Below, one piece after another: positions 4,971-52,094 of a stretch of 52,094 bases of DNA. The notes beneath the pieces were generated by a model. The model was not told where the DNA came from. It ran no database searches and saw only the letters and a program-made list of their open reading frames with translations. Source of the stretch: a virus; IMG/VR virus record IMGVR_UViG_3300042923_000131, positions 1-52,094 of that record, one strand, 5' to 3'. Position 1 is the first letter of the stretch. Every line of letters begins with the position of its first letter. A program made the position numbers and the translations under genes.

Positions 4971-6320
4971 ATGTTTCAAGGAAGTATACCGGCTAGTGGA
5001 TTAAAGGTAATGGCAAATGTTATAAAAGATTGGAAATGTGAAAAGATTTATGTAGGTTGTTCAGGTAATTTTACAGTAGAAAGATGCATAAGCAAATTTT
5101 TTGAAGGAACTATATTAAGCAATGATGTAACAATATATAGTGCAAACTTAGGTAAGTATTTCGCAGGAGAAGAATTAGTAGATTTTGAAGTGCGAGAAGA
5201 CTATGAAGGTTACTGCCAATATTTCAGAGATTATATGAATACTAATACAGAGAAGATGGCTACAATGATATTGGCTACAGATATATTACCTTATGAAAAA
5301 AAGAATATTCCTTATTTTAAAAGGATGTTAAAAGCGTATGAAGAACAATGGCCTGAAATGCACAAGACTATGTGTATAAAATTAGAAAATATAGAGACGA
5401 AGATAGAGAACTTTTATTATGGTGATGTAATGAATATGCTAGATGAAATAGATGAAGATACAGGTTTTGTAAGCTTCCCACCATTCTTTAAAGGTGGATA
5501 TGAAAAAATGTGGAAAGACTTAGAAACAACTTTTACGTATGAACCTCCAAGTTATGTAGAGTTTGACCCAGATAAGCATATTGCTATATTTTGTGAGAAA
5601 GTTAAAAAAGCTAAAAACTTTATTATAGGGACAGAGAGAATAGTACCAGAGTTACAAGAGTTCTATTCAGGAATGGCTTTAACAGCTAAGAATAAACCTA
5701 TATACTTTTACTCAAGAACAGATAAGCGAGTATTTATAAGACCTCTAACTAAGCACTCTTTACTAAAAGTAGAAAGAATAAAGAAAAATGATAAGATAAA
5801 TAATGTAGAGATAAAGAAATTAAGTCATGAACAATTTGATGAACTTAGAGCAGTTTATTTGAGTAAGATGATTACACCAGCTAGAGAATCAGCTGCGTTT
5901 GGATTATTTACAGATAATAAACTTTTTGGAGTATTTGCATTTAGTACATCAATGACTTTAGTTAATAGCTTTGAGAATATGATATCAGGACCAACTATAT
6001 ATTTGATGACAGATTTCGCTATAAGTCCAACAAGTGAAACTCATCTGAGCAAATTAGTTCTGAATTGTATATTAAGTAAAGAAGTAAAACAGATAGCTGA
6101 GAATTTAATGAATAAAAGAGTAAGGTCTGTATGTACTAATGCATTTAGTAAGAATCCAATCTCTATGAAATATAGAAGTGTTTTCGAGCAATTAAATCGT
6201 AGAGAAATGGACGTAGATAAAGCAACTGGAAAGGTTACGAAATATAATCTTACTTATGGAGCATTGATGGGTCAATGGACTCTGCAGGAGGGGTATGAAA
6301 AATGGAAACAAAAATCATAA
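4971..6320 (+). CDS. Adenine-methylase-like / Mom-like DNA modification protein
   Basis: The 449-residue protein appears to join two parts. Residues 25-200 resemble a D12-type adenine methyltransferase, with YVGCSGNFTVERC (27-39, like a SAM-binding motif I) and a variant catalytic motif SFPPFF (168-173) where active enzymes have DPPY/F. Residues 300-410 resemble the GNAT-fold Mom family (AFGLFTDNKLFGVFAFS and CTNAFSKNPISMKYR), whose phage Mu member modifies adenine to evade restriction. Phage proteins of this layout are often labelled antirestriction adenine methyltransferase. It overlaps the ParB-domain gene, its likely partner. The Ser in place of Asp in the PP motif suggests the methylase half may be non-catalytic. 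Confidence 0.65.
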   Translation: MFQGSIPASGLKVMANVIKDWKCEKIYVGCSGNFTVERCISKFFEGTILSNDVTIYSANLGKYFAGEELVDFEVREDYEGYCQYFRDYMNTNTEKMATMILATDILPYEKKNIPYFKRMLKAYEEQWPEMHKTMCIKLENIETKIENFYYGDVMNMLDEIDEDTGFVSFPPFFKGGYEKMWKDLETTFTYEPPSYVEFDPDKHIAIFCEKVKKAKNFIIGTERIVPELQEFYSGMALTAKNKPIYFYSRTDKRVFIRPLTKHSLLKVERIKKNDKINNVEIKKLSHEQFDELRAVYLSKMITPARESAAFGLFTDNKLFGVFAFSTSMTLVNSFENMISGPTIYLMTDFAISPTSETHLSKLVLNCILSKEVKQIAENLMNKRVRSVCTNAFSKNPISMKYRSVFEQLNRREMDVDKATGKVTKYNLTYGALMGQWTLQEGYEKWKQKS

Positions 6321-7225
6321 GAATAAATCCGAGAGAGATTAAACTCTTAGAAGTAAATGCAAGATATATGAAAGCAGCTGAATATCAGCAATTAGTGCAA
6401 AATATTAAAAATGATGGTAAGCTTACATCAGTTCCGTTTTGCTGTTTAGATGAAAATTGGGATTGGGAAGTATTATCAGGAAATCATAGAGTACAAGCTG
6501 CTATAGAGGCAGGATTACAAGAAATAGATATTATGTGTACAGAAGAAGAGCTGACTCAGAATCAAAAATTAGGGATTCAAATTAGTCATAACAGTATAAC
6601 TGGTCAAGATGATTTAGCCATACTAAAACAGCTATATGAGAGTATAGATGATATAGCCTATAAGAGTTATTCTGGATTAGATGATGATACTCTGCAGCTT
6701 TTAGATAAAGTAGGAAATCAATCTATGTCAGCAATAGGTTTAGAATATCAGGTTATGAATATGGTTATTCTACCTACAGAGCTTAATATGGTACGTAAAA
6801 TAATGGACAAGGTTAAAGAAGAAGTAAAAAAGAATAAAGCATTAACTCTGAGGTATTCTGAGTACGACAAATATTTAGATACACTAGAAGATGTAGGTAG
6901 TGCTACGGGAATAAAGAACACTGCGACTGCTTTTTTAATGATGCTAGATATTGTAGATAATCATATGGATGAGTTAAAAGACGTATGGATTGAGGAAGAA
7001 GGAAATGATAAAGTATGGATTCCGATAAGCACATTAACAGGAAGACCTAAAGTTAGAGCTGTTGATGGCAGAGTAATAGATAAAGCAATTCAAAAGCTTA
7101 TTGATAAAGGAGAAGTCAAAAAGAATAAGAAAGAAGAAGCTTTAGCAATATTAGCACAAAAGTATTTGGATAATGAAAAGAGTGAGAAGAAAAATAATAA
7201 GAAAAATAAAGATAAAAAAAGCTAA
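6302..7225 (+). CDS. ParB-like nuclease-domain protein
   Basis: Residues 5-100 form a ParB/Srx-fold domain: INPREIKLLEVNARYM, then WEVLSGNHRVQAAIEAGL with the diagnostic GNHRVQAA box (60-67). The rest is helical with a Lys-rich tail. ATG 6302 follows AGGAGGGG and overlaps the Mom-like gene by 19 nt, so expression is coupled. There is no ParA and no partition site, so a plasmid-style role is unlikely. ParB-fold proteins next to DNA-modification genes are thought to guide or accompany modification, or to hydrolyse CTP. Confidence 0.82.
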   Translation: METKIIRINPREIKLLEVNARYMKAAEYQQLVQNIKNDGKLTSVPFCCLDENWDWEVLSGNHRVQAAIEAGLQEIDIMCTEEELTQNQKLGIQISHNSITGQDDLAILKQLYESIDDIAYKSYSGLDDDTLQLLDKVGNQSMSAIGLEYQVMNMVILPTELNMVRKIMDKVKEEVKKNKALTLRYSEYDKYLDTLEDVGSATGIKNTATAFLMMLDIVDNHMDELKDVWIEEEGNDKVWIPISTLTGRPKVRAVDGRVIDKAIQKLIDKGEVKKNKKEEALAILAQKYLDNEKSEKKNNKKNKDKKS

Positions 7226-8209: not shown

Positions 8210-8238
8210 CATATGAGGGAGAAATCCCTCAACATATG
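8210..8238 (+). other. Hairpin just upstream of the tRNA
   Basis: GAGGG/CCCTC (8215-8219/8226-8230) is extended by CATAT/ATATG (8210-8214/8234-8238) across a small bulge. Its 3' arm reaches the first base of the tRNA acceptor stem, so it may be a 5' processing signal or a terminator of the 7924 gene. Confidence 0.5.
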
Positions 8239-8311
8239 CAAGTGTAGTTCAATAGCAGAACAATGGCTTTCCAAGTCGCAGACGGTAGTTCGATTCTATC
8301 CACTTGCTCCA
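8238..8311 (+). tRNA. tRNA-Gly (anticodon UCC)
   Basis: The acceptor GCAAGTG (8238-8244) pairs with CACTTGC (8301-8307). The discriminator is T8308, usual for bacterial Gly, and CCA (8309-8311) is encoded. The D stem is GTTC/GAAC, the anticodon TCC (8270-8272) sits in a TTTCCAA loop, and the T arm GGTAG-TTCGATT-CTATC is normal. Two oddities are the 7-nt D loop (AATAGCA) without the usual GG and an A-C mismatch at the base of the anticodon stem. It reads GGA/GGG codons, which suits the Gly-rich phage structural proteins. Confidence 0.93.
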
Positions 8312-35522: not shown

Positions 35523-36461
35523 ATGGAGAATACCAAAGGAAATGAACTTGCAAAAGTTTTATACTATTACGGTTTTATATCTAATGCTAATACATCAGAG
35601 CAGAAGATAGTATGTCCTTTTCATAATGATATAAATCCAAGTATGAAAGTAGATTTGATAAAAAACTCATGGATTTGTTTTGGTTGTGGATTAAATGGAG
35701 ACGCTATAAAGTTTGTTCGATATGCAGAAAAAGAATTAAGCGAAATGGAGTCTCTAAAAAAATATTATAAAATATTGAAGTCAAAAAAAACAGCTCATAT
35801 TAAATTAGGAATGAGAATAAAAGAAAGAAAGAAAAATATACAACAAGATTTAATAGAGGCTAAAGATTATTATTATTGTTTAAGTAAAATAGATTGGAAG
35901 AACAATGATACTCAAGAAGTTATCGAAGCTAGAGACTATATGAAAAAAAGAGGATTTACAGAAAACGCTTTAAATTCGTGTAAAGCTAAAATAACATATA
36001 ATGAGCATTATGGTTTGATATTTCCTATGTTAGATAATGGAGAGTTTAAAGGTTGGGTTTGTAGAACAATGCTACCTAGCATAGAAAAGAAAAGAAAATA
36101 TTTATATAATACTGGTTTTAGTAGAGCTACAACTTTAGTAGGAACATATAATGATAAATCTGATTTGTATTTAGTAGAAGGTTATATGGATATGCTAAAG
36201 TTTAAACAATTTGGAATTAGAAATGTAGCAGCTCTTTTAGGATGGAAGATATCAAATGAACAAATATTAAAGCTTAAAGCTAAAGGAATTAAAAGAATAA
36301 TTTCAGCATTAGATAACGATGAATGTGGTAAAAAAGGAAGTGCAGAATTAAGCAAACATTTTGAAGTAAAAAGATTTTGCTATTTAAGAAAAGTAAAAGA
36401 CCCAGGTGATATGACTAAAGAGCTATTTGAAAAGATGAATAAAAAAACAAAAGGGGAATAA
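35523..36461 (+). CDS. DnaG-like DNA primase
   Basis: It makes RNA primers for phage DNA synthesis. An N-terminal CHC2 zinc finger is visible (C31 and H34 in CPFHND; C52 and C55 in ICFGCG), as is a Toprim domain with E219 (LVEGYMD), D264 and D266 (SALDNDECG). At 312 residues it is shorter than host DnaG and lacks the C-terminal helicase-binding domain. It is one base upstream of the SSB-like gene. Confidence 0.9.
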   Translation: MENTKGNELAKVLYYYGFISNANTSEQKIVCPFHNDINPSMKVDLIKNSWICFGCGLNGDAIKFVRYAEKELSEMESLKKYYKILKSKKTAHIKLGMRIKERKKNIQQDLIEAKDYYYCLSKIDWKNNDTQEVIEARDYMKKRGFTENALNSCKAKITYNEHYGLIFPMLDNGEFKGWVCRTMLPSIEKKRKYLYNTGFSRATTLVGTYNDKSDLYLVEGYMDMLKFKQFGIRNVAALLGWKISNEQILKLKAKGIKRIISALDNDECGKKGSAELSKHFEVKRFCYLRKVKDPGDMTKELFEKMNKKTKGE

Positions 36462-36463
36462 AT

Positions 36464-37303
36464 ATGGGATTGATAAGTAAGATAAAAAATGATGTAAAAA
36501 AATCAGGTACTAACAAAGGTAAACTCGCTTATTTAAAAGATGGAGACAAAAAGAGATATAGATTTTTAACAGATATGGACGATGGGTTAGAAGTAGTTTT
36601 TCATGATAGCTTTGCAGCTGGTATTAATGTTCCATGCCAAGAAAACTTTGGACTACCTTGTGATTTTTGCGAAGACTCAGATTTAAGAACAAGAAGTTTA
36701 TATTGCTGGAGTGTATGGGATTATGACTTGAAAGAAGTTAAGCTGTTTTTATTTGCAGTTAACAATTGTTCACCAGTTCCTGCTCTTATGGCTTTATATG
36801 AAACTTATGGAACTTTGATTGATAGAGATATGGTAGTGTCAGTTAATGGTAAAGCTCAAAATAAAACTTTTAATGTAGTTCCTATGGATAAGCAAAAGTT
36901 CAGAAATGAAAAAGCAAAACCATTATCTGAGAAAGCGATATTAAAAATAATTAATAAAGCGTTTCCTACGGATGACTCAGAAGATGACGACGATGATGAT
37001 ATTGAAGAAACTAAAAAAACAAAAACTAAAGCTAAGTCAAAAGCTAAAACAAAACCTGCTAAAAAGTCTAAACCTAAAGAAGACGAATGGGACGAAGAAG
37101 AAGACGAGGATGAAGAAGAAGACGAAATCGATTATTCAGATATGACTCCGAAAGAATTATATGCTATGTGCAAAGAAAAAGATATAGATTGTCAAATTAG
37201 AAAGCCAGCTAAATACTATGCAAAACTTTTAGAAGAATTTGATAAAGCTACTGATGATTGGGAAGACGATGAGGAAGAAGACGATGACGAGTGGGAAGAT
37301 TAA
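36464..37303 (+). CDS. Single-stranded DNA-binding protein (gp32-like) with HeH-like tail
   Basis: The core (KLAYLKDGDKKRYRFLTDMD, with a zinc-type Cys group in PCDFCEDSDLRTRS and YCWSVWDYDLKEVKLFLFAV) resembles phage gp32-like SSBs. After residue 170 come acidic and Lys/Ala/Thr linkers, a helix-extension-helix module (IDYSDMTPKELYAMCKEKD) and an acidic tail (EEDDDEWED). The tail would recruit polymerase, primase and recombination proteins. The module is nearly copied in the 51758/1-590 protein. The next gene starts inside its 3' end. Confidence 0.8.
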   Translation: MGLISKIKNDVKKSGTNKGKLAYLKDGDKKRYRFLTDMDDGLEVVFHDSFAAGINVPCQENFGLPCDFCEDSDLRTRSLYCWSVWDYDLKEVKLFLFAVNNCSPVPALMALYETYGTLIDRDMVVSVNGKAQNKTFNVVPMDKQKFRNEKAKPLSEKAILKIINKAFPTDDSEDDDDDDIEETKKTKTKAKSKAKTKPAKKSKPKEDEWDEEEDEDEEEDEIDYSDMTPKELYAMCKEKDIDCQIRKPAKYYAKLLEEFDKATDDWEDDEEEDDDEWED

Positions 37304-37637
37304 AAATCTAACATTCCAATCATGCTATACTCAGCAAATGGAGTATCAAGAAGAAGTTACAGAGGTAAAAGATTTACCAAAAGATAATTTAGAACATTTC
37401 AGTTATCATATACAAGCTATGGTAGAAGAATTGGGTGAAGTAATGAAAGCTGATAAACGTTGGAAAACTCACAGAAACAGTTCTTATAATTCAGCTGAAA
37501 AGTTAGAAGAAATAGCCGATGTTTTTATAACTGCTATGAATATAGCTATACATTCTGGATATACATCTGATGAAGTTCTAAAAGAAATATCTGATAAAAT
37601 AAATAAAAATTACAAAATATTAGGTGCTGAGGAATAA
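37284..37637 (+). CDS. MazG-like NTP pyrophosphohydrolase
   Basis: The motif HIQAMVEELGEVMKADKRWK followed by EKLEEIADVFITAMNIAI carries the EExGE and EExxD acidic pairs of all-alpha NTP-PPases (MazG/dUTPase-like). It would remove non-canonical or unwanted dNTPs. ATG 37284 overlaps the SSB gene by 20 nt in another frame. A terminator is embedded over its stop. Confidence 0.82.
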   Translation: MTSGKIKNLTFQSCYTQQMEYQEEVTEVKDLPKDNLEHFSYHIQAMVEELGEVMKADKRWKTHRNSSYNSAEKLEEIADVFITAMNIAIHSGYTSDEVLKEISDKINKNYKILGAEE

Positions 37638-37648
37638 TCCTCAGTTTC
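37627..37648 (+). terminator. Stop-codon-overlapping terminator
   Basis: CTGAGGA/TCCTCAG (37627-37633/37638-37644) with an ATAA loop is followed by TTTC. The loop holds the stop codon of the MazG-like gene. Confidence 0.7.
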
Positions 37649-37673
37649 ACTTATATACTAAAGGAGCGAGTAA

Positions 37674-38165
37674 ATGATAGTTATAGTAGAAGGTATAGAT
37701 AGAGTAGGAAAAACAACATTATGTAATAAGTTAAAAAGTGACTTAGGCTTTAAAATTCTTAAAGATGAAGTTTTTAAGCCAGAACATTTCACGGAAGAAA
37801 TAATTGCAGAAAAATTCCTTACAACAGTTAATATGCTAAAACTCTTAAATAAAGATATTGATATAGTTATTGATAGATTTTATTTATCAGAAGCAGTGTA
37901 TGGTTTGATGGAAAGAAAGTATGATAGCAAGTATTTGAAAAAGATAGAGTTAGAACTGCTTAAGCTTGACGCTATTATTATATTAGTAAATCCAACAGAT
38001 ATTGAAGAATCAAGTAAAAAGCATGGAAAAGATTTAACTATACATAGTATTTTATTTAATCTAAGATTTGAAAAAATAATCTTAAGAAAAATTCTATGTA
38101 AATATGATAATTTTAAATTTGTTGTAGAGCATTTAAAAGACTTGAAAGTAAGTGAAAAACTATGA
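37674..38165 (+). CDS. Deoxynucleoside monophosphate kinase (thymidylate-kinase-like)
   Basis: The P-loop EGIDRVGKTTL (6-16) and DRFYLSEAVYG (67-77) are the TMK-type substrate and lid signatures. It turns a (possibly modified) dNMP into dNDP. It opens a run of tightly overlapping nucleotide genes (FAD protein, HAD, ThyX-like, methyltransferase). Confidence 0.87.
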   Translation: MIVIVEGIDRVGKTTLCNKLKSDLGFKILKDEVFKPEHFTEEIIAEKFLTTVNMLKLLNKDIDIVIDRFYLSEAVYGLMERKYDSKYLKKIELELLKLDAIIILVNPTDIEESSKKHGKDLTIHSILFNLRFEKIILRKILCKYDNFKFVVEHLKDLKVSEKL

Positions 38166-39061
38166 ATATGAAAGTGATATTAGGAGCAGGTTTATCAGGA
38201 CTAACTTTGGCTACTTGTTTTAAAAATAACTCAGCCATGATTCCAGTTTTATTCAGTAAAGATTATGGTGGACAGATGAAATCACCTTTTCCTTTAGGAC
38301 CTAGAATTTTACATAATAGTTCAAATAAAGTAATTGAGTTTTTAGATTATTTAGGAATAAAAGATAAGCCTAGAGATTTTAAAATAGGATATTACAAATC
38401 GTGTCAAATAAAAGGTGAAGCAACTGAAAGAGAAAGAATAGAGTATATTTTAAAAACAAGAGGAAACTCTAATATAATTGAAAGTTCAATGTCAGCAAAA
38501 GCTAGTACAATTAATGGTTGGGATATGAATGAAATAAATCTATTAAATAAAATGCTAGTAAAGATAAAGATAGTTAAAAGGCCAATTCATAGAGAACTGA
38601 TTGATGGATTAATAAGAATGGGTGGCAATGATATTTATTCAACTATAGATTATTTTGACTTAGCTAAAATGCTATCAGGTAGACCTTATAGAAGAGCTAG
38701 TATAGCTAAAGAAAAAGATGAAAGTTTTGTAGAGCAGTGTTTTTATTGTATAAAAGTAGATGATGATTCTTTTAAAGGGTATGATTATATTTATAATTTA
38801 GACCCAGAAGATAGCGTAAAAAGAATGACTAAGTTTATTTATGAAGGAGAAACCTATTGTATTTATGAAAGTATGAGACCAGAAAGTTTATTGAATGAAA
38901 TGTCTCATACATTCAGACCGATAAAAAAGCAGATACAAATAGTGCAAAATTTGAATGTAAATAATATTAAAGGAGTAACTTTAGTAGGAAGATATGCTCA
39001 AGTTGACCACTCAGTAAGAATAGATACAATAATAAATAAGTACTGGGAGAGTAAAGTATGA
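38162..39061 (+). CDS. FAD-dependent oxidoreductase / amine-oxidase-like
   Basis: The N-terminal Rossmann motif GAGLSGLTLAT (8-18) and a C-terminal GRYAQVDHSVRIDTIINKYW segment are the ends of a bipartite FAD-binding domain like UDP-galactopyranose mutases and amine oxidases. The middle is unlike any family I know. It overlaps both neighbours by 4 nt and lies next to a divergent ThyX, so it may act on a nucleotide or a DNA base. The substrate is unknown. Confidence 0.7.
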   Translation: MNMKVILGAGLSGLTLATCFKNNSAMIPVLFSKDYGGQMKSPFPLGPRILHNSSNKVIEFLDYLGIKDKPRDFKIGYYKSCQIKGEATERERIEYILKTRGNSNIIESSMSAKASTINGWDMNEINLLNKMLVKIKIVKRPIHRELIDGLIRMGGNDIYSTIDYFDLAKMLSGRPYRRASIAKEKDESFVEQCFYCIKVDDDSFKGYDYIYNLDPEDSVKRMTKFIYEGETYCIYESMRPESLLNEMSHTFRPIKKQIQIVQNLNVNNIKGVTLVGRYAQVDHSVRIDTIINKYWESKV

Positions 39062-39615
39062 ATAAAAGTTGCGTAATAGATATTGATGGTGTACTGAATT
39101 ATTATCCTGAAACATGGTTGGATTTTGTAGCCGATAAGACAGGATTTTTTTATAACAATTTGCATGATATGAAAAATGAAATAAGTTATAATGAATACAC
39201 TAAATTAAAAGAAGAGTATCGAAATTGTGGAATTAAAGAGAATTTAAAAGTAAGAGAAGGAGCTGTAGAATTACTGGATTATTTAAAATCAATAGGATAT
39301 TACATAATTATTACAACAGCTAGACCAGTAAATTTACATCAAAATTTAATGTCTCAAACATCTAATTGGCTAAAAAAGAATAAGCTAGATTATGATAATT
39401 TATTCTTCTCTTTTAAGAAACATCTAACTATAGTAGAATATTTTAAAAGTATAGATTTTGCTATTGAAGATAATAGATATTATATAAACGATATAGCTGA
39501 AATGGGGTACAAAGGTTATTTAGTAGATAATATTTATAATCAAGGAGACGTGGAAGAAAAAGTAGTAAGAGTGAAAAATCTAAAAGAAATTGAGGATGAT
39601 TTAAAATGCCGATAA
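39058..39615 (+). CDS. HAD-family nucleotidase/phosphatase
   Basis: Motif I is VIDIDGVLNYYP (6-17), motif II is IITTARPVN, and FAIEDNRYYINDIAEMG is motif IV-like. This is close to 5'(3')-deoxyribonucleotidases. It could dephosphorylate host dNMPs so that a phage-specific nucleotide dominates. It overlaps the genes on both sides. Confidence 0.8.
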   Translation: MNKSCVIDIDGVLNYYPETWLDFVADKTGFFYNNLHDMKNEISYNEYTKLKEEYRNCGIKENLKVREGAVELLDYLKSIGYYIIITTARPVNLHQNLMSQTSNWLKKNKLDYDNLFFSFKKHLTIVEYFKSIDFAIEDNRYYINDIAEMGYKGYLVDNIYNQGDVEEKVVRVKNLKEIEDDLKCR

Positions 39616-40640
39616 ATAATAACCTTAAGAAAAAAGATTTTCCAATGCGGTTGAAATTTGATAAAAGTCCATATACTTATTATCAAAATAATTTAGAATC
39701 AATAGATGTAAAGTTGATAATGGCTCCTAAATATGAAGATGTAAGAACTGGATGTATTGCTTTTGCTAACGCTACATGGGCTGACAGACCTTGGAATAAA
39801 AATGAAATTAATAAATATATGAGTGAAAAAACACAAGATAAATTTATGTATCATATATTTAGTAAAAAGATATTGCCGACAACTATGGAAACTATTCAGT
39901 TGACTTTTAAAATATCAGGAATAAGCTTACAAGAAGTAACTCATATTCTCAGATATAGAAATGCAACGTTTTCAGCAGAATGTTCTGGTGATAAATTTTT
40001 ACATGATAAAGGGTTTTTAATCCCAACGTCAATAGAGAACTCCAAAGAATTTGATGAAAGATATGTAAAAATATGCGAAGATGCTAAAGCGTTATATTGT
40101 GATATGGTAGAAACAAAAGAAATAAATATACACGATGCTAGATATATAATGCCAAGATGCTTAGAAACTTTTTATTTTATGAGTATGGATTTAAAAACAG
40201 CTTTACAATTTATATATGATAGAGTAGATAAACAGATTCAGCCACAAACTGATAATGTTTTAGCTTATCAAATGATTTCAGCCTTATGTATACAATATCC
40301 TATTTTAGTTAAAATTATAGGTAAAGATTTTATACACAGAAAGGCTGATTTTTATATAAATACAGCTAGACAATTTAGAAGTACAAACTGGTATTGTCCA
40401 GATAAAGACTCTGATGTATTTGAATATAACGAAGAAGATTTTATTTACGGTGATAAAAGACGTGATGAAATGCTAGGTTTGTGTGATGTATTATATCCAT
40501 CAAATGTATTCAAATTTATATTAGAAGATTTAGAAAAATTCTTAGTTAATTTAGAAAAGCATATTGATTCAAAATATGGTAAAGATTTTTTCAAAGAAGA
40601 TTTAACAAAAGAAGATATAGGATGGTGCTATAATATATGA
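39606..40640 (+). CDS. Divergent ThyX-like flavin-dependent thymidylate synthase
   Basis: The ThyX fold is suggested by THILRYRNATFSAECSGDKF (113-131) in place of RHRxxSxNExSxR, and ARYIMPRCLETFYFMSMDLK followed by LQFIYDRVDKQIQPQTD. RYR replaces RHR, and the dUMP-binding Arg after the Ser appears to be Asp or missing; the AQWEI motif is also lost. At 344 residues it is longer than usual. It may make thymidylate or a modified pyrimidine such as a hydroxymethyl form. It neighbours a dNMP kinase, HAD enzyme, FAD protein and methyltransferase. Confidence 0.72.
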   Translation: MPINNNLKKKDFPMRLKFDKSPYTYYQNNLESIDVKLIMAPKYEDVRTGCIAFANATWADRPWNKNEINKYMSEKTQDKFMYHIFSKKILPTTMETIQLTFKISGISLQEVTHILRYRNATFSAECSGDKFLHDKGFLIPTSIENSKEFDERYVKICEDAKALYCDMVETKEINIHDARYIMPRCLETFYFMSMDLKTALQFIYDRVDKQIQPQTDNVLAYQMISALCIQYPILVKIIGKDFIHRKADFYINTARQFRSTNWYCPDKDSDVFEYNEEDFIYGDKRRDEMLGLCDVLYPSNVFKFILEDLEKFLVNLEKHIDSKYGKDFFKEDLTKEDIGWCYNI

Positions 40641-41407
40641 ATGTGAATAATTCAAATAGTGAGTTTCAAAACTTTAGTGAATGTGATTTAACAAAGCACT
40701 GGTCTTATTCTAATTACAATAGAAATTTAATGATGGCTAATATTATTAAAGATTTAGCTGATAAAAGAAGATATAATTTACCAAATATGATATTAGAAAT
40801 AGGAGCAGGAGATAGTCCTTTGGAATATATGAGCGTAGCAAATTTTAATACATATTGTACTGAATGGATTAAAATAGATGGTGATGCTAAGAGATATAAG
40901 GATGATGCTAGCATAAAGTTATTTGATATTGAAAGTAAAGACTTCTATAATTTTATACAGACTCTTAGATGTAAACCTAACGTTGTGGTAATGTCAGAAG
41001 TAATTGAGCATATGAGTTCAAAAGAATCAGCTAAAAAAGTTATAGAAAATTTGTATCATGTTATGGAAGAAGAAAGTTATCTTTTATTAACAACTCCTAC
41101 TCCACCTTTAGATGGTATATATGAAGAAAGAGTTTGGCCAGATGACCATGAATTTGAGTTTACATATGACGAGATATATGATATACTAAATATATACTTT
41201 AAAATAGAAAAAAAGATTGGATGGAGCTTAGAAGAGCGAGAGTATAATGATTTACTTAAGAATGATGAGTTTATTGGAAAAACCTATTTGAATTTAAAAG
41301 GTTTAATGCCAGAAGGATATATTAGAAGTTTGATATCTTTATTAGCGTATCCAGAAATGAATAGGCAAGTATTATTAGTATGTAGGAAAAGAAGGGTTAT
41401 TTTATGA
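40637..41407 (+). CDS. Class I SAM-dependent methyltransferase
   Basis: Motif I is ILEIGAGDSPLEYM (about 52-65); motif IV-like is VVVMSEVIEHMSS; the substrate loop is LLTTPTPPLDG. The pattern suits small-molecule, sugar or nucleotide methylation rather than DNA methylation (no DPPY). It overlaps both neighbours by 4 nt in the nucleotide operon. Confidence 0.8.
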   Translation: MNVNNSNSEFQNFSECDLTKHWSYSNYNRNLMMANIIKDLADKRRYNLPNMILEIGAGDSPLEYMSVANFNTYCTEWIKIDGDAKRYKDDASIKLFDIESKDFYNFIQTLRCKPNVVVMSEVIEHMSSKESAKKVIENLYHVMEEESYLLLTTPTPPLDGIYEERVWPDDHEFEFTYDEIYDILNIYFKIEKKIGWSLEEREYNDLLKNDEFIGKTYLNLKGLMPEGYIRSLISLLAYPEMNRQVLLVCRKRRVIL

Positions 41408-44160
41408 TTGATTTACATAGACATGATGAGTATTCGACATTTGATGGATTTGGAAAAGCTAAGGAAATAGCTAAGATAGCAAAAGAATTAGGACATACTT
41501 CTTTAGGGATTGCTAATCATGGTAATACTAATGGATTGATTCAACATTATTATGATTGTAATGAACAAGGTATCAAACCAGTTCTAGGAGTAGAATGTTA
41601 CTTTCAGCCAGTATTTAATAAAGAAAAGCCAAGATATCATTTATGTTTATTTGCTAAAGATTTAGTAGGTTATGGAAACATAAATAGGATATTATATGCA
41701 GCTGAACAACATAAATATTATACACCTTTAGTACTGTTTGAAGATTTAGAAAAACACAGTGAAGGTGTAATATGTACATCGGCTTGTATAGCAGGAATAG
41801 TATCACAAGCTATTGAAAAAGGTAACATAGATTTAGCTGAAAAAGCTATGAAGAAATTTAAAAAGATATTTGGAGAAGATTATTATATAGAGATACAACC
41901 TTATAAAATTGATGAAATGAGAACACAGGAAAAAGTAAATGTAGAACTAATAAAACTAGCTGTGAAATTAAAGATAAAATGTATACTTACATCGGATAGC
42001 CATTATGGCTCGAGAGAAGATTTTGAAACGTATAAAGTAATGCATGAAATAGCTAAACATAATTATGATATAGAGGCAACTTATGGTGAAAGATTCATGC
42101 CAACAGAAAAAGAATTAAAAGTAAGATTTTATAAAATGCATAAGAAAGATTTTGGAGAAGAGCAAGCGAAGAAAATGTCTTTATCTATGATTAGAAATTT
42201 AGAACAAATAGAAGATAAAGTAGAAGATAATATTTTAGAAGGATTAGAGCTAAAGTTGCCTCAAATGTTTGAAGGTCATGATAGCTATGAGGTTCTTGAA
42301 AAAGAAGTTAGAAAAGGGTTAAAAGAAAAAGGCTTTGGGAAAAACAAAGTATATATAGATAGATGTAAAGCAGAGCTTGAAGTAATTAAGTTTCATGGTT
42401 ACTCTGATTATTTTCTTATAGTTCAAGATTATGTTGATTGGGCTATGAAAAGAGGAATTAACATTGGACCGGGTAGAGGCTCAATTTGTAATTGTGAAGT
42501 AGCTTATATTATAGGTATTACAACAGTTGATAGTATAAAGTTCAATTTAGAGTTTAGAAGATTTATGAGGATGGATAAGAAAAGCATGCCTGATATTGAT
42601 TTAGATTTTGAAACGAGCAGAAGACAAGAAGTAATAGATTATATGGTAGATAAGTATAAAGGACATGCAGCTCAAATATGTAATTACGGTTTGTATAAGA
42701 TAGATAATTTAATAAACGATTTGGCAAAAGTAAGTGGTTTAGTTGTCTCAGGTAAAGATGTGAGTGATGAAGAAAAGAAGTCAAGGAAGATAGAAATAGC
42801 GGCCATTAAAAAACATATAAGAAAATATGATGATGAAAATGGGATAGATTTTAAATCTTTAAAAGCAACGAAAGAGTTTAAATATTATGATAAAGAGTAT
42901 TACAATATAATGACTCATTTTTCTAAGCTTTATCAAAAAGTAAGATTCATAGGAACTCATGCTGCAGGAGTAGCTATAACTGGTGGTAATCTACTTGATT
43001 ATGTTACATTAAGGATAGATTCTAAAACAGGAAAGACGTTCTCAAATTATGATTTAGGTGATTTAGACAGAATCAAAATAATAAAGTTTGATTTCTTAGG
43101 ACTTAAAACTATGGAAGAGCTAGGAGAATTAAGAGTACTTGCGGGGAAAGATAATTATTTTGATATCTCAGAACATATCGAAGACGAAAAGATTAATGAG
43201 AGATTCAATAAAGGAGATACAACTGGTATATTTCAATTTGGTGCAGCTACTGCTAAGAACATTTTAATAGATATAGATTCAGATTGCTTTGAAGACATAA
43301 CAGCAGCATCGGCTATGAACAGACCAGGGCCATTAAGTTTAAAGATGCCTTTAACTTACTCAGAGAACAAATTTAATAAAGAGGAATCAATGGGAAGTAA
43401 GTATTGGGATTATACTAAAGAGACTTACGGAACGATAGTATATCAAGAACAACTTATGGCGATATGTACGAATATAGGTCAGATGACTTGGGGTGAAGCA
43501 GATAAAGTCATGAAGATTCAAAAGAGAAGTGGTCAGAATGCTGCAGCTCTTACAGGAGCTAATGCTAAAGTTTTAGAAGTAAAAGACGAATTGATAGAGA
43601 AGTTTGTTAAAGGTGCTATGAATAATGGCTATAAAGAAAAAGAAGCTTACGACTTTTTTCAAAATCTGTTAGTATATACTTTTAATAAAGGCCATGCAGT
43701 AGGCTACACTTTGATAAGTTTTGAAGCTATGTATTATAAAGTTTATTATCCAACAGAGTTTTGGTATACTAAAATTAAGTACGCTAAAGATGATGAAGAG
43801 ATATCAAGATTTTGTGTAAACGCAGTTGGAGACGAAGCCGTTGTTTTTTTACCACATTGTAATTATTCTCAAGCTAGAACGAGTATTAGGAGAACAGAGG
43901 GAGAAAACGTTATTCAACAAGGATTTACTAATTTAAAAGGAGTAGGAGAAAAAGCAGCAGAATATATAGTAGCTGAAAGAGATAAGAATGGTATATTCAA
44001 ATCGTATGATGATTTTTACGATAGATGTAAAAGCAGAACGGTTACGTCAAGAGTTATAGATATAATGAAAGACCAAGGTACATTAGAATTTAATAAGAAA
44101 ATATACATAAGTAGAGTAACTAAGTTTAATAGTGCTTTATATACAAGAGTTTCTAAATAA
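41404..44160 (+). CDS. DNA polymerase III alpha-like (C-family) replicative polymerase
   Basis: The N-terminal PHP domain has DLHRHDEYSTFDGFG (3-17) and TSDSHYGSRED (196-206). GPGRGSI is at 355-361, and the catalytic acid pair is in MPDIDLDF (395-402). A FIGTHAAGVAIT and NRPGPL region and a C-terminal helix-hairpin-helix (LKGVGEKAAEYI) follow. At 918 residues it lacks the long C-terminal OB and tau-binding parts of host DnaE. It is probably the phage replicase. It overlaps the methyltransferase. Confidence 0.95.
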   Translation: MIDLHRHDEYSTFDGFGKAKEIAKIAKELGHTSLGIANHGNTNGLIQHYYDCNEQGIKPVLGVECYFQPVFNKEKPRYHLCLFAKDLVGYGNINRILYAAEQHKYYTPLVLFEDLEKHSEGVICTSACIAGIVSQAIEKGNIDLAEKAMKKFKKIFGEDYYIEIQPYKIDEMRTQEKVNVELIKLAVKLKIKCILTSDSHYGSREDFETYKVMHEIAKHNYDIEATYGERFMPTEKELKVRFYKMHKKDFGEEQAKKMSLSMIRNLEQIEDKVEDNILEGLELKLPQMFEGHDSYEVLEKEVRKGLKEKGFGKNKVYIDRCKAELEVIKFHGYSDYFLIVQDYVDWAMKRGINIGPGRGSICNCEVAYIIGITTVDSIKFNLEFRRFMRMDKKSMPDIDLDFETSRRQEVIDYMVDKYKGHAAQICNYGLYKIDNLINDLAKVSGLVVSGKDVSDEEKKSRKIEIAAIKKHIRKYDDENGIDFKSLKATKEFKYYDKEYYNIMTHFSKLYQKVRFIGTHAAGVAITGGNLLDYVTLRIDSKTGKTFSNYDLGDLDRIKIIKFDFLGLKTMEELGELRVLAGKDNYFDISEHIEDEKINERFNKGDTTGIFQFGAATAKNILIDIDSDCFEDITAASAMNRPGPLSLKMPLTYSENKFNKEESMGSKYWDYTKETYGTIVYQEQLMAICTNIGQMTWGEADKVMKIQKRSGQNAAALTGANAKVLEVKDELIEKFVKGAMNNGYKEKEAYDFFQNLLVYTFNKGHAVGYTLISFEAMYYKVYYPTEFWYTKIKYAKDDEEISRFCVNAVGDEAVVFLPHCNYSQARTSIRRTEGENVIQQGFTNLKGVGEKAAEYIVAERDKNGIFKSYDDFYDRCKSRTVTSRVIDIMKDQGTLEFNKKIYISRVTKFNSALYTRVSK

Positions 44161-51757: not shown

Positions 51758-52094
51758 ATGGCGAAGAATTGGACAATAGCTGAGGCTGCAAAGGAAATTA
51801 AGAAAAATAGTTTAGAGGAAATACTAGACTTCGGAAAGAGATATCCGTTAGCAACAAATGTATTAACAAGAGCGATAACAGAATCTAAAAGCGTAATGGA
51901 TTTACTAGGAGCTCTACCAGAGTACAATACAATGAACAAGTTGAATAGTGCATTGAAAGAGGGAGTGGAAGAATCAGATTCAGAAGATGAAGCAGACGAA
52001 ACTCCAAAAGAAACTAAGAAAGAGCAAAAAGTCAAAGCAAAAGATTCCGATGATGAATCAGTTGATATCGAAAGTATGACAGCGAAAGCTATGT
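51758..52094 (+). CDS. Acidic SAP/HeH-like protein, 5' part (continues at 1-590)
   Basis: ATG 51758 follows AAAAGGAGAGATTTAGAA. The first 46 residues (AKNWTIAEAAKEIKKNSLEE and on) are absent from the copy at the window start, showing that the two ends join. See the entry at 1-590 for the rest. Two silent differences between the ends lie in this gene. Confidence 0.85.
   Translation, partial: MAKNWTIAEAAKEIKKNSLEEILDFGKRYPLATNVLTRAITESKSVMDLLGALPEYNTMNKLNSALKEGVEESDSEDEADETPKETKKEQKVKAKDSDDESVDIESMTAKAM
51888..52094. repeat. Terminal overlap, copy 2 (pairs with 1-207)
   Basis: Same 207-base segment as 1-207, with G at 51940 and 51967 where copy 1 has A. Confidence 0.95.

What the first reader, a model, noticed from the sequence alone, without database searches (positions are those of the whole stretch)
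37284..41407. Overlapping nucleotide cluster with divergent ThyX and a FAD oxidoreductase
MazG-like PPase, dNMP kinase, FAD oxidoreductase, HAD nucleotidase, ThyX-like enzyme and SAM methyltransferase run together, most with 4-10 nt overlaps. The ThyX motif is changed (RYR for RHR, dUMP-binding Arg lost). This is the kind of set that makes an altered pyrimidine nucleotide and clears the normal one.
Basis: partly seen in the sequence, partly recalled or inferred. Interest (0 to 1): 0.62.

Follow-up and report, generated by a model that had tools for sequence, protein, structure and literature searches.

The report
Phage cassette around a divergent ThyX
This virus carries a tight block of nucleotide-handling genes around an unusual relative of a DNA-building-block enzyme, of the kind that would let it make a non-standard DNA letter while destroying the standard one; versions of the block recur in many viruses, but the product has not been shown.

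Summary
The cluster is real. Its ThyX-like protein belongs to a separate, well-conserved subfamily ("ThyX2"): 96 of 96 members carry R[HY]Rx7C[TS][GA]D[RK], none the canonical RHRx7SxR. ThyX2 often shares a genome with another ThyX (27 of 69 records) or ThyA (2 of 69). Ordinary phage ThyX genes lack its neighbours: NDT 37 of 43 versus 0 of 32, MazG/dUTPase_2 39 of 43 versus 0 of 32, and a 5'-nucleotidase of HD or HAD type, never both. This copies the logic of the 2-aminoadenine and T4 cassettes: make one odd dNMP, clear the normal one. A half-size ThyA-like partner (16 of 43 loci) has the dCMP-type Asp in every covered copy, favouring cytosine. The window lacks that partner; its lineage replaced NDT plus HD by the FAD-like protein plus HAD. 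RYR is a minor clade trait. Against a protective base change here: GATC is almost absent (5 sites, 158.6 expected). Best reading: a ThyX-derived synthase of a C5-substituted pyrimidine dNMP, probably from dCMP; unproven.

The parts
37284..37637 (+). MazG/dimeric-dUTPase-like dNTP pyrophosphohydrolase
   Evidence: PF08761 23.3 bits, cut-off 22.9; the family HMM of its relatives matches T4 gp56 dCTPase/dUTPase at E 2.7e-13 in a two-protein search
37674..38165 (+). P-loop dNMP kinase, thymidylate-kinase-like
   Evidence: PF02223 37.6 bits; present in 21 of 43 dereplicated ThyX2 loci, fused to NDT in several
38162..39061 (+). FAD/NAD-binding-like oxidoreductase of an uncharacterised family, standing where relatives have NDT
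   Evidence: GxGxxG-like N-terminus; homologues only in L051, L052, L132 and L133, all in ThyX-like cassettes without NDT; structure model failed, pLDDT 31.7
39058..39615 (+). HAD-family 5'-deoxynucleotidase (NT5C-like)
   Evidence: PF06941 25.4 bits; HAD and HD(YfbR) never occur together in 96 loci
39606..40640 (+). ThyX2: divergent flavin-dependent thymidylate-synthase-like enzyme
   Evidence: PF02511 69.4 bits; subfamily motif 96 of 96; AlphaFold2 pLDDT 90.8; best PDB matches are ThyX structures, Z 16.4, rmsd 3.2, 214 residues
40637..41407 (+). SAM-dependent methyltransferase-like protein; not conserved with the cassette
   Evidence: PF13489 23.5 bits, below its cut-off; relatives near ThyX2 in 4 of 43 loci, the window included
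41404..44160 (+). PHP-domain DNA polymerase III alpha-like polymerase, the usual downstream neighbour
   Evidence: Named from its sequence and from annotated homologues in GR1 and pBS32; its protein cluster is near ThyX2 in 31 of 43 loci

Best explanation
The cluster is one lineage's version of a conserved phage cassette built around ThyX2, a neofunctionalised ThyX. Most likely ThyX2 transfers a one-carbon unit from methylene-tetrahydrofolate, through its flavin, to C5 of a deoxypyrimidine monophosphate for something other than plain dTMP synthesis. The likeliest substrate is dCMP, giving 5-methyl- or 5-hydroxymethyl-dCMP. The kinase lifts the product towards the triphosphate. The MazG/dUTPase_2-like enzyme cuts the normal dNTP to dNMP, which both feeds ThyX2 and removes the competitor. 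The HAD nucleotidase (HD in relatives) removes leftover normal dNMP. NDT in relatives, and perhaps the FAD-like protein here, complete the removal or tailor the base. SHOWN here: the distinct subfamily, ThyX fold, changed dUMP-site residues, coexistence with canonical thymidylate synthases, the specific and mutually substitutable neighbours, and a ThyA-like partner with the dCMP-type Asp in relatives. INFERRED: substrate, product, direction of each neighbour's activity, and use in DNA. UNKNOWN: the role of the FAD-like protein and the methyltransferase.
For: Subfamily: 96 members score 410-497 bits against a ThyX2 HMM built from 34 of them, the canonical ThyX genes in the same loci 21-40; one side of a 100/100 branch against 10 canonical ThyX. 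Motif R[HY]Rx7C[TS][GA]D[RK] 96 of 96, canonical RHRx7SxR 0 of 96, against 10 of 10 in canonical copies from the same loci. PMC3498832 (passages) lists Arg78, Arg80, Ser88 and Arg90 as dUMP-binding; ThyX2 keeps the first two. Coexistence: a second PF02511 gene in 8 of 20 and 19 of 49 records; 13 of those 19 carry RHRx7SxR and the other 6 keep the S-x-R-Y part on inspection. L051, nearest to the window in architecture, has both. Two of 20 records have a canonical ThyA. Control: NDT 37 of 43 v 0 of 32, MazG 39 v 0, HAD 22 v 0, HD 17 v 0, kinase 21 v 0, mini-ThyA 16 v 0 around ThyX2 v canonical phage ThyX. HD and HAD: overlap 0 of 96 loci. dCMP: the mini-ThyA residue aligned with T4 gp42 Asp179 is Asp in the 31 covered of 34 copies, Asn in two canonical ThyA; Asp179/Asn177 sets dCMP v dUMP choice (PMC6400193; PMC8670742; passages). 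Precedent for cassette logic: PurZ phages with NDT-family, YfbR-like and MazG-like partners that converge independently (PMC12884076, passages; PMC8342488, abstract).
Against: The window phage has one PF02511 gene and no PF00303 gene, so ThyX2 could be its only thymidylate synthase. It lacks the mini-ThyA. GATC is depleted to 5 of 158.6 expected, GAATTC 0 of 11.5 and TCTAGA 0 of 9.7 (half of the both-strand counts); PMC7653180 (passages) reports that 5hmC and 5mC phage DNAs resist 82-90% of type II enzymes, so full C replacement should relax such avoidance, although MboI cuts 5hmdU DNA. A conserved Lys/Arg two residues after the lost Arg90 may still hold a phosphate. ThyX R90A and S88C variants are deposited as structures, R90A with dUMP bound (titles only). 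The kinase and dUTPase-type enzymes would also suit ordinary dTMP synthesis. The neighbour HMMs were trained on ThyX2 loci, which favours finding them there.
Confidence: 0.48

Rival explanations
1. ThyX2 is a flavin-dependent dUMP hydroxymethylase: it makes 5-hydroxymethyl-dUMP, and the cassette replaces thymine as in SPO1 or SP-15.
For: 5-hydroxymethyl-dUMP is the acid-trapped intermediate of ThyX (PMC3498832, PMC4913046, passages). The PF02511 protein gp130 of SP-15, a phage with hypermodified thymine, was proposed as the hydroxymethyluridylate synthase (PMC5977210, passages), and SP-15 also holds an NDT and a YfbR-like nucleotidase. MboI (GATC) cuts 5hmdU DNA fully, so GATC avoidance is compatible.
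Against: 27 of 69 records carry a second ThyX-family gene that would make dTMP. The mini-ThyA partner has the dCMP-type Asp. SPO1 and SP-15 avoid T-free sites (GGCC 1 of 54.0 and 0 of 17.6 expected), while the window avoids GATC and keeps GGCC (23 against 18.5). SP-15 gp130 is not matched by the ThyX2 HMM.
Confidence: 0.2
2. ThyX2 is a divergent but ordinary dTMP synthase in a dNTP-pool operon (dUTPase, dTMP kinase, nucleotidase); no altered base exists.
For: PF02511 fold, with the Glu58, Arg78, Arg80, Arg147 and Arg174 equivalents kept in 96 of 96 (numbering partly recalled); dUTPase_2 and thymidylate-kinase families; no other synthase in the window; strong GATC avoidance.
Against: Coexistence with canonical ThyX or ThyA; dNMP-destroying neighbours specific to ThyX2 and absent around canonical phage ThyX; the thyX equivalog model of NCBIfam is missed by far, 31.6 against 87.9 bits.
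Confidence: 0.22
3. The cassette acts on free nucleotides for another end, such as starving the host or recycling host DNA, with ThyX2 acting on a nucleotide that never enters DNA.
For: Nucleotidase, NDT and MazG families degrade or exchange nucleotides; the ThyX-family PolB methylates UMP/dUMP (PDB title of 4p5b; its antibiotic pathway is recalled).
Against: A kinase (21 of 43) and a replicative polymerase (31 of 43) are frequent companions.
Confidence: 0.1

Closest known systems
2-aminoadenine (Z) cassettes of S-2L and relatives: PurZ, DatZ (YfbR-like HD), MazZ, NDT-family DmtZ
   Same: One synthase of an odd nucleotide plus YfbR-like, MazG-like and NDT-like pool enzymes, which are acquired independently and converge in function (PMC12884076, PMC8342488)
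   Different: The synthase is ThyX-derived; no PF00709 gene in the window, and one in only 3 of 50 records, the window's included
T4 hydroxymethylcytosine pathway (gp42 dCMP hydroxymethylase, gp56 dCTPase, gp1 kinase, td)
   Same: gp56-like pyrophosphohydrolase family, a ThyA-like protein with the dCMP Asp in relatives, and a separate thymidylate synthase in many relatives
   Different: No full-size gp42; the candidate synthase is a flavin-enzyme relative; the nucleotidase and NDT have no T4 counterpart that I know of (recalled)
Bacillus phage SP-15 gp130 (PF02511 protein proposed as hydroxymethyluridylate synthase)
   Same: A second, odd ThyX-family protein in a phage that also has NDT and YfbR genes
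   Different: 413 aa; not matched by the ThyX2 HMM; hypothesis only in PMC5977210
Canonical ThyX (T. maritima, M. tuberculosis)
   Same: Fold (Z 15-16) and several flavin/nucleotide residues
   Different: Ser88-x-Arg90, His53 and Ser30 regions changed in 96 of 96 (His53 and Ser30 labels recalled)
PolB, UMP/dUMP methylase of the ThyX family (PDB 4p5a/4p5b)
   Same: Precedent for a ThyX-family enzyme with another substrate; Z 15.5
   Different: 15% identical over the structural alignment; a Streptomyces gene

Membership tests
ThyX (FAD-dependent thymidylate synthase) | PF02511 match and ThyX fold | tested here: met
   69.4 bits, cut-off 24.8; Z 16.4, rmsd 3.2, 214 aligned to 3gwc_B
ThyX (FAD-dependent thymidylate synthase) | RHRx7S-x-R dUMP/FAD motif | tested here: not met
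   0 of 96 ThyX2 proteins, 10 of 10 canonical copies from the same loci
ThyX (FAD-dependent thymidylate synthase) | NCBIfam equivalog TIGR02170 cut-off | tested here: not met
   31.6 bits against 87.9
ThyX (FAD-dependent thymidylate synthase) | Makes dTMP from dUMP | not testable with these tools
   needs an assay
Z (2-aminoadenine) cassette | PurZ, an adenylosuccinate-synthetase homologue | tested here: not met
   no PF00709 match in the window
Z (2-aminoadenine) cassette | MazG-like and deoxynucleotide-clearing enzymes beside the synthase | tested here: met
   the window has dUTPase_2/MazG-like and HAD families; relatives have YfbR-like HD and NDT; activities untested
T4-type dCMP hydroxymethylation | ThyA-family hydroxymethylase with catalytic Cys and dCMP Asp | tested here: not met
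   absent from the window; a half-size form with both residues in relatives
T4-type dCMP hydroxymethylation | dCTPase of the gp56 family | tested here: met
   family HMM v T4 gp56 E 2.7e-13 in a two-protein search; activity untested
SPO1-type dUMP hydroxymethylation | ThyA-family dUMP hydroxymethylase | tested here: not met
   no PF00303 match in the window
NT5C-type 5'-deoxynucleotidase | PF06941 cut-off | tested here: met
   25.4 bits, cut-off 24.8
FAD-dependent oxidoreductase | Curated dinucleotide-binding domain score | tested here: not met
   NAD_binding_8 17.0 bits, cut-off 21.9; profile search of PDB sequences best E 0.06, thiamine thiazole synthase; a GxGxxG-like motif is present

The most novel reading that the evidence does not exclude
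ThyX2 is a flavin-dependent dCMP C5-(hydroxy)methylase, a second and independent evolutionary origin of base-substituted cytosine DNA, carried by a widespread pyrimidine counterpart of the 2-aminoadenine cassette; in the window's lineage a new flavoprotein has taken over from NDT and alters or clears the base in a further way.
Probability: 0.3. Interest if true: 0.85.

Novelty: new variant of a known kind. Interest (0 to 1): 0.6.

Why it matters
If true, dozens of unstudied phages, the plasmid pBS32 of Bacillus subtilis NCIB 3610 and the cultured Geobacillus phage GR1 may make a non-standard pyrimidine by flavin chemistry that has not been looked for. GR1 and pBS32 make it testable in laboratory strains. 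ThyX2 genes are now annotated as thymidylate synthase, which may be wrong. If false, the result still says that a phage can keep two ThyX-family enzymes with different company, which needs an explanation.

Tried and rejected
RYR as the key change: rejected, it is a clade trait (11 of 96). A decayed or inactive ThyX: unlikely, many core residues are invariant in 96 sequences. The cassette as general phage ThyX company: rejected by the control. Z-DNA: no PF00709 in the window. Defence system: no PADLOC match for 7 of the 8 proteins given; the kinase hit PDC-M51B at E 6.4e-8. FAD-like protein function: the first pattern scan found no relative; no phage record matched from three family members; the structure model failed; the PDB sequence profile gave E 0.06; no function assigned. 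Restriction-site avoidance as a test of base change: evidence against a protective change, not decisive. A paper on pBS32 and thymidylate synthase: 0 hits for pBS32 + NCIB 3610 + thymidylate synthase. On print: searches with ThyX + 5-methylcytosine + phage + dCMP, ThyX + hydroxymethyl + phage + flavin-dependent + modified and ThyX + bacteriophage + modified base + hydroxymethylcytosine (listing of 12 of 120 seen) showed no report of this subfamily; the library lacks most subscription papers. Rows dropped before counts: L001 (a copy of the window), L021 (truncated) and L004 (57.9 bits) from the ThyX2 set; L114 and L021 from the control, and 26 of 78 control loci because they hold ThyX2; 53 of 96 loci by 85% dereplication. 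The second-synthase records were 20 and 49: the 49 are those of 75 with contigs over about 33 kb, because the tool takes 50.
Full report
What is there. The window is a 52,094-base virus record whose last 207 bases repeat its start at 99%, so it is probably complete. Between a DnaG-like primase (35523-36461), an acidic protein in the place of an SSB, and a PHP-domain DNA polymerase III (41404-44160) lie six genes on the + strand: MazG/dUTPase_2-like, dNMP kinase, FAD-like oxidoreductase, HAD nucleotidase, ThyX-like enzyme and methyltransferase-like protein. Junctions were computed, families. The FAD protein has only a sub-threshold domain hit.

A distinct subfamily. tblastn against 50,697 phage records gave one relative, in Geobacillus phage GR1; against plasmids it gave 48 records, 36 of them Bacillus (the listed rows are the 84-kb B. 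subtilis plasmid type, including that of NCIB 3610) at 39% and 12 C. difficile at 26%. Profile-guided scans added IMG/VR contigs and two metagenome-assembled contigs, then 232 encoded relatives of which 80 were kept. In all 96 full-length members were held. Their HMM scores are 410-497 bits; canonical ThyX genes in the same loci score 21-40 and the Xanthomonas phage XcP1 protein 58. On a tree of 43 dereplicated members and 10 canonical copies the subfamily is one side of a 100/100 branch. I call it ThyX2.

What changed in the active site. PMC3498832 (passages) names Arg78, Arg80, Ser88 and Arg90 of T. maritima ThyX as residues that hydrogen-bond dUMP. ThyX2 keeps both first arginines in 96 of 96. 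After them it reads x7-C-[TS]-[GA]-D-[RK] in 96 of 96, where canonical copies read x7-S-x-R in 10 of 10. The mixed alignment misplaced the loop of the canonical copies, so the count was made by pattern on each sequence. The His53 and Ser30 regions are also changed in 96 of 96 (labels recalled). RYR is found in 11 of 96. The model of the window protein (pLDDT 90.8) matches ThyX structures best. A conserved Lys or Arg two positions on could take over from Arg90; this was not tested.

Company in the genome. A second PF02511 gene occurs in 8 of 20 records and 19 of 49. Of the 19, 13 carry RHRx7SxR; the other 6 keep the S-x-R-Y part (five after KHR, one without RHR, by eye). Two of 20 records have a full ThyA; the one PF00303 hit of 49 is a mini-ThyA-like protein. 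The window record has one PF02511 and no PF00303 gene. Records may be fragments and many are related, so these are not independent counts. L051, which shares the kinase, FAD-like, HAD, RYR-ThyX2 order with the window, also has a canonical ThyX (G018).

Company in the neighbourhood. Within 6 kb of ThyX2 in 43 dereplicated loci: MazG/dUTPase_2 39, NDT 37, HAD 22, kinase 21, HD (YfbR-like) 17, mini-ThyA 16, dCMP deaminase 5, methyltransferase 4, FAD-like 3 (one search gave 37 for MazG with a stricter gene caller). The same HMMs around 32 dereplicated canonical phage ThyX genes without ThyX2 nearby gave 0 for all of these except dCMP deaminase, 4 of 32. The HMMs were trained on ThyX2 loci, a bias; but they also find the NDT and YfbR genes of the unrelated phage SP-15 at E 2.9e-27 and 3.5e-21. 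HD and HAD never occur together (0 of 96; 17 and 22 of 43; 9 of 96 have neither), and the tree needs 6 changes for HAD and 5 for HD. The window (HAD plus FAD-like) and its sister L022 (HD plus NDT, with two FkbM-type methyltransferases) are joined at 100/99. So two nucleotidase types seem to fill one role, and the FAD-like protein sits in the NDT slot.

The FAD-like protein. Relatives were found only in L051, L052, L132 and L133. All have the kinase, HAD and MazG-like families of the cassette, except that MazG was not found by the HMM in L051, and none has NDT. L132 pairs it with a more distant ThyX-like protein (69 bits), a mini-ThyA and a dCMP deaminase (L133 ends before the ThyX-like gene). 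Its function is open.

Which pyrimidine. The mini-ThyA is the C-terminal half of the ThyA fold, directly after ThyX2 or fused to a P-loop kinase further downstream. Its Cys is kept in 33 of 34 copies, the other being truncated, and the residue aligned with T4 gp42 Asp179 is Asp in the 31 covered copies, Asn in the two canonical ThyA from GR1-like phages. PMC6400193 (passages) and PMC8670742 (passages) describe this residue as the dCMP/dUMP determinant. That, and the coexistence with a dTMP-making enzyme, favours dCMP. But the window has no mini-ThyA.

Evidence against a protective base change here. The window holds 5 GATC sites against 158.6 expected, and GAATTC and TCTAGA are absent. Seven of 42 other ThyX2 loci are depleted in GATC below 0.2, all in the window's 13-row clade; the median is 0.86. 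As yardsticks, SPO1 and SP-15, whose thymine is replaced or modified, avoid the T-free sites GGCC and CGCG or CCGG. PMC7653180 (passages): 5hmC and 5mC DNAs resist 82% and 90% of tested enzymes, 5hmdU DNA about 8%, and MboI cuts 5hmdU DNA. So a bulky or full cytosine change in this phage is disfavoured, a small or partial one is not, and an ordinary genome is possible.

Reading. The set repeats the logic of the 2-aminoadenine cassettes, in which NDT-family, YfbR-like and MazG-like enzymes were recruited repeatedly around PurZ (PMC12884076, passages; PMC8342488, abstract), with a ThyX-derived enzyme in the place of PurZ. ThyX itself passes through an intermediate trapped as 5-hydroxymethyl-dUMP (PMC3498832, PMC4913046, passages), so a small change could yield a hydroxymethylase. 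The nearest published idea is the proposal for SP-15 gp130 (PMC5977210, passages), a different protein. I hold the altered-pyrimidine reading at about two in three for the family (cytosine first), lower for this phage, and an ordinary synthase at about one in five.

Noticed in passing
4971-6320 and 6302-7225: Phage DAM-like domain (PF22555, E 1.2e-71) fused to a phage GNAT-like domain (PF22559, E 3.6e-44), followed by a ParB-like protein: perhaps an adenine-modifying enzyme.
   Followed up: partly
whole window: GATC 5 sites against 158.6 expected; GAATTC and TCTAGA absent.
   Followed up: yes
51888-52094 and 1-207: Ends repeat at 99% over 207 bases, so the record is probably a complete, terminally redundant or circular map.
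   Followed up: partly
36464-37303 and 51758-590 across the ends: Two acidic proteins share a motif like MTxKELYxLCKxxxIxxxxxKPAKYYxxxLE (read by eye).
   Followed up: no
8238-8311: One tRNA-Gly (tcc).
   Followed up: no
L103:15690-16595, L070:14040-14948 and others: P-loop kinase-like domain fused to a half-size ThyA-like domain with the dCMP-type Asp.
   Followed up: partly
records G029, G045, G048 (loci L075, L099, L102): PurZ-sized PF00709 proteins in 3 of 50 records: possible combination with 2-aminoadenine DNA.
   Followed up: no
L132:5942-14544: A more distant cassette: dCMP deaminase, MazG, FAD-like, MazG-HAD fusion, mini-ThyA, kinase, polymerase III, ThyX-like.
   Followed up: partly
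L126 (Mycobacterium phage Onyinye): Oxidoreductase, HAD phosphatase, DnaE-like polymerase and a ThyX-like protein lie within 8 kb; the oxidoreductase was not shown to be related to the window's.
   Followed up: no
L004 (XcP1) and L129 (SP-15): A 3-oxoacyl-ACP-reductase-like gene lies next to or near a ThyX-family gene in both.
   Followed up: no
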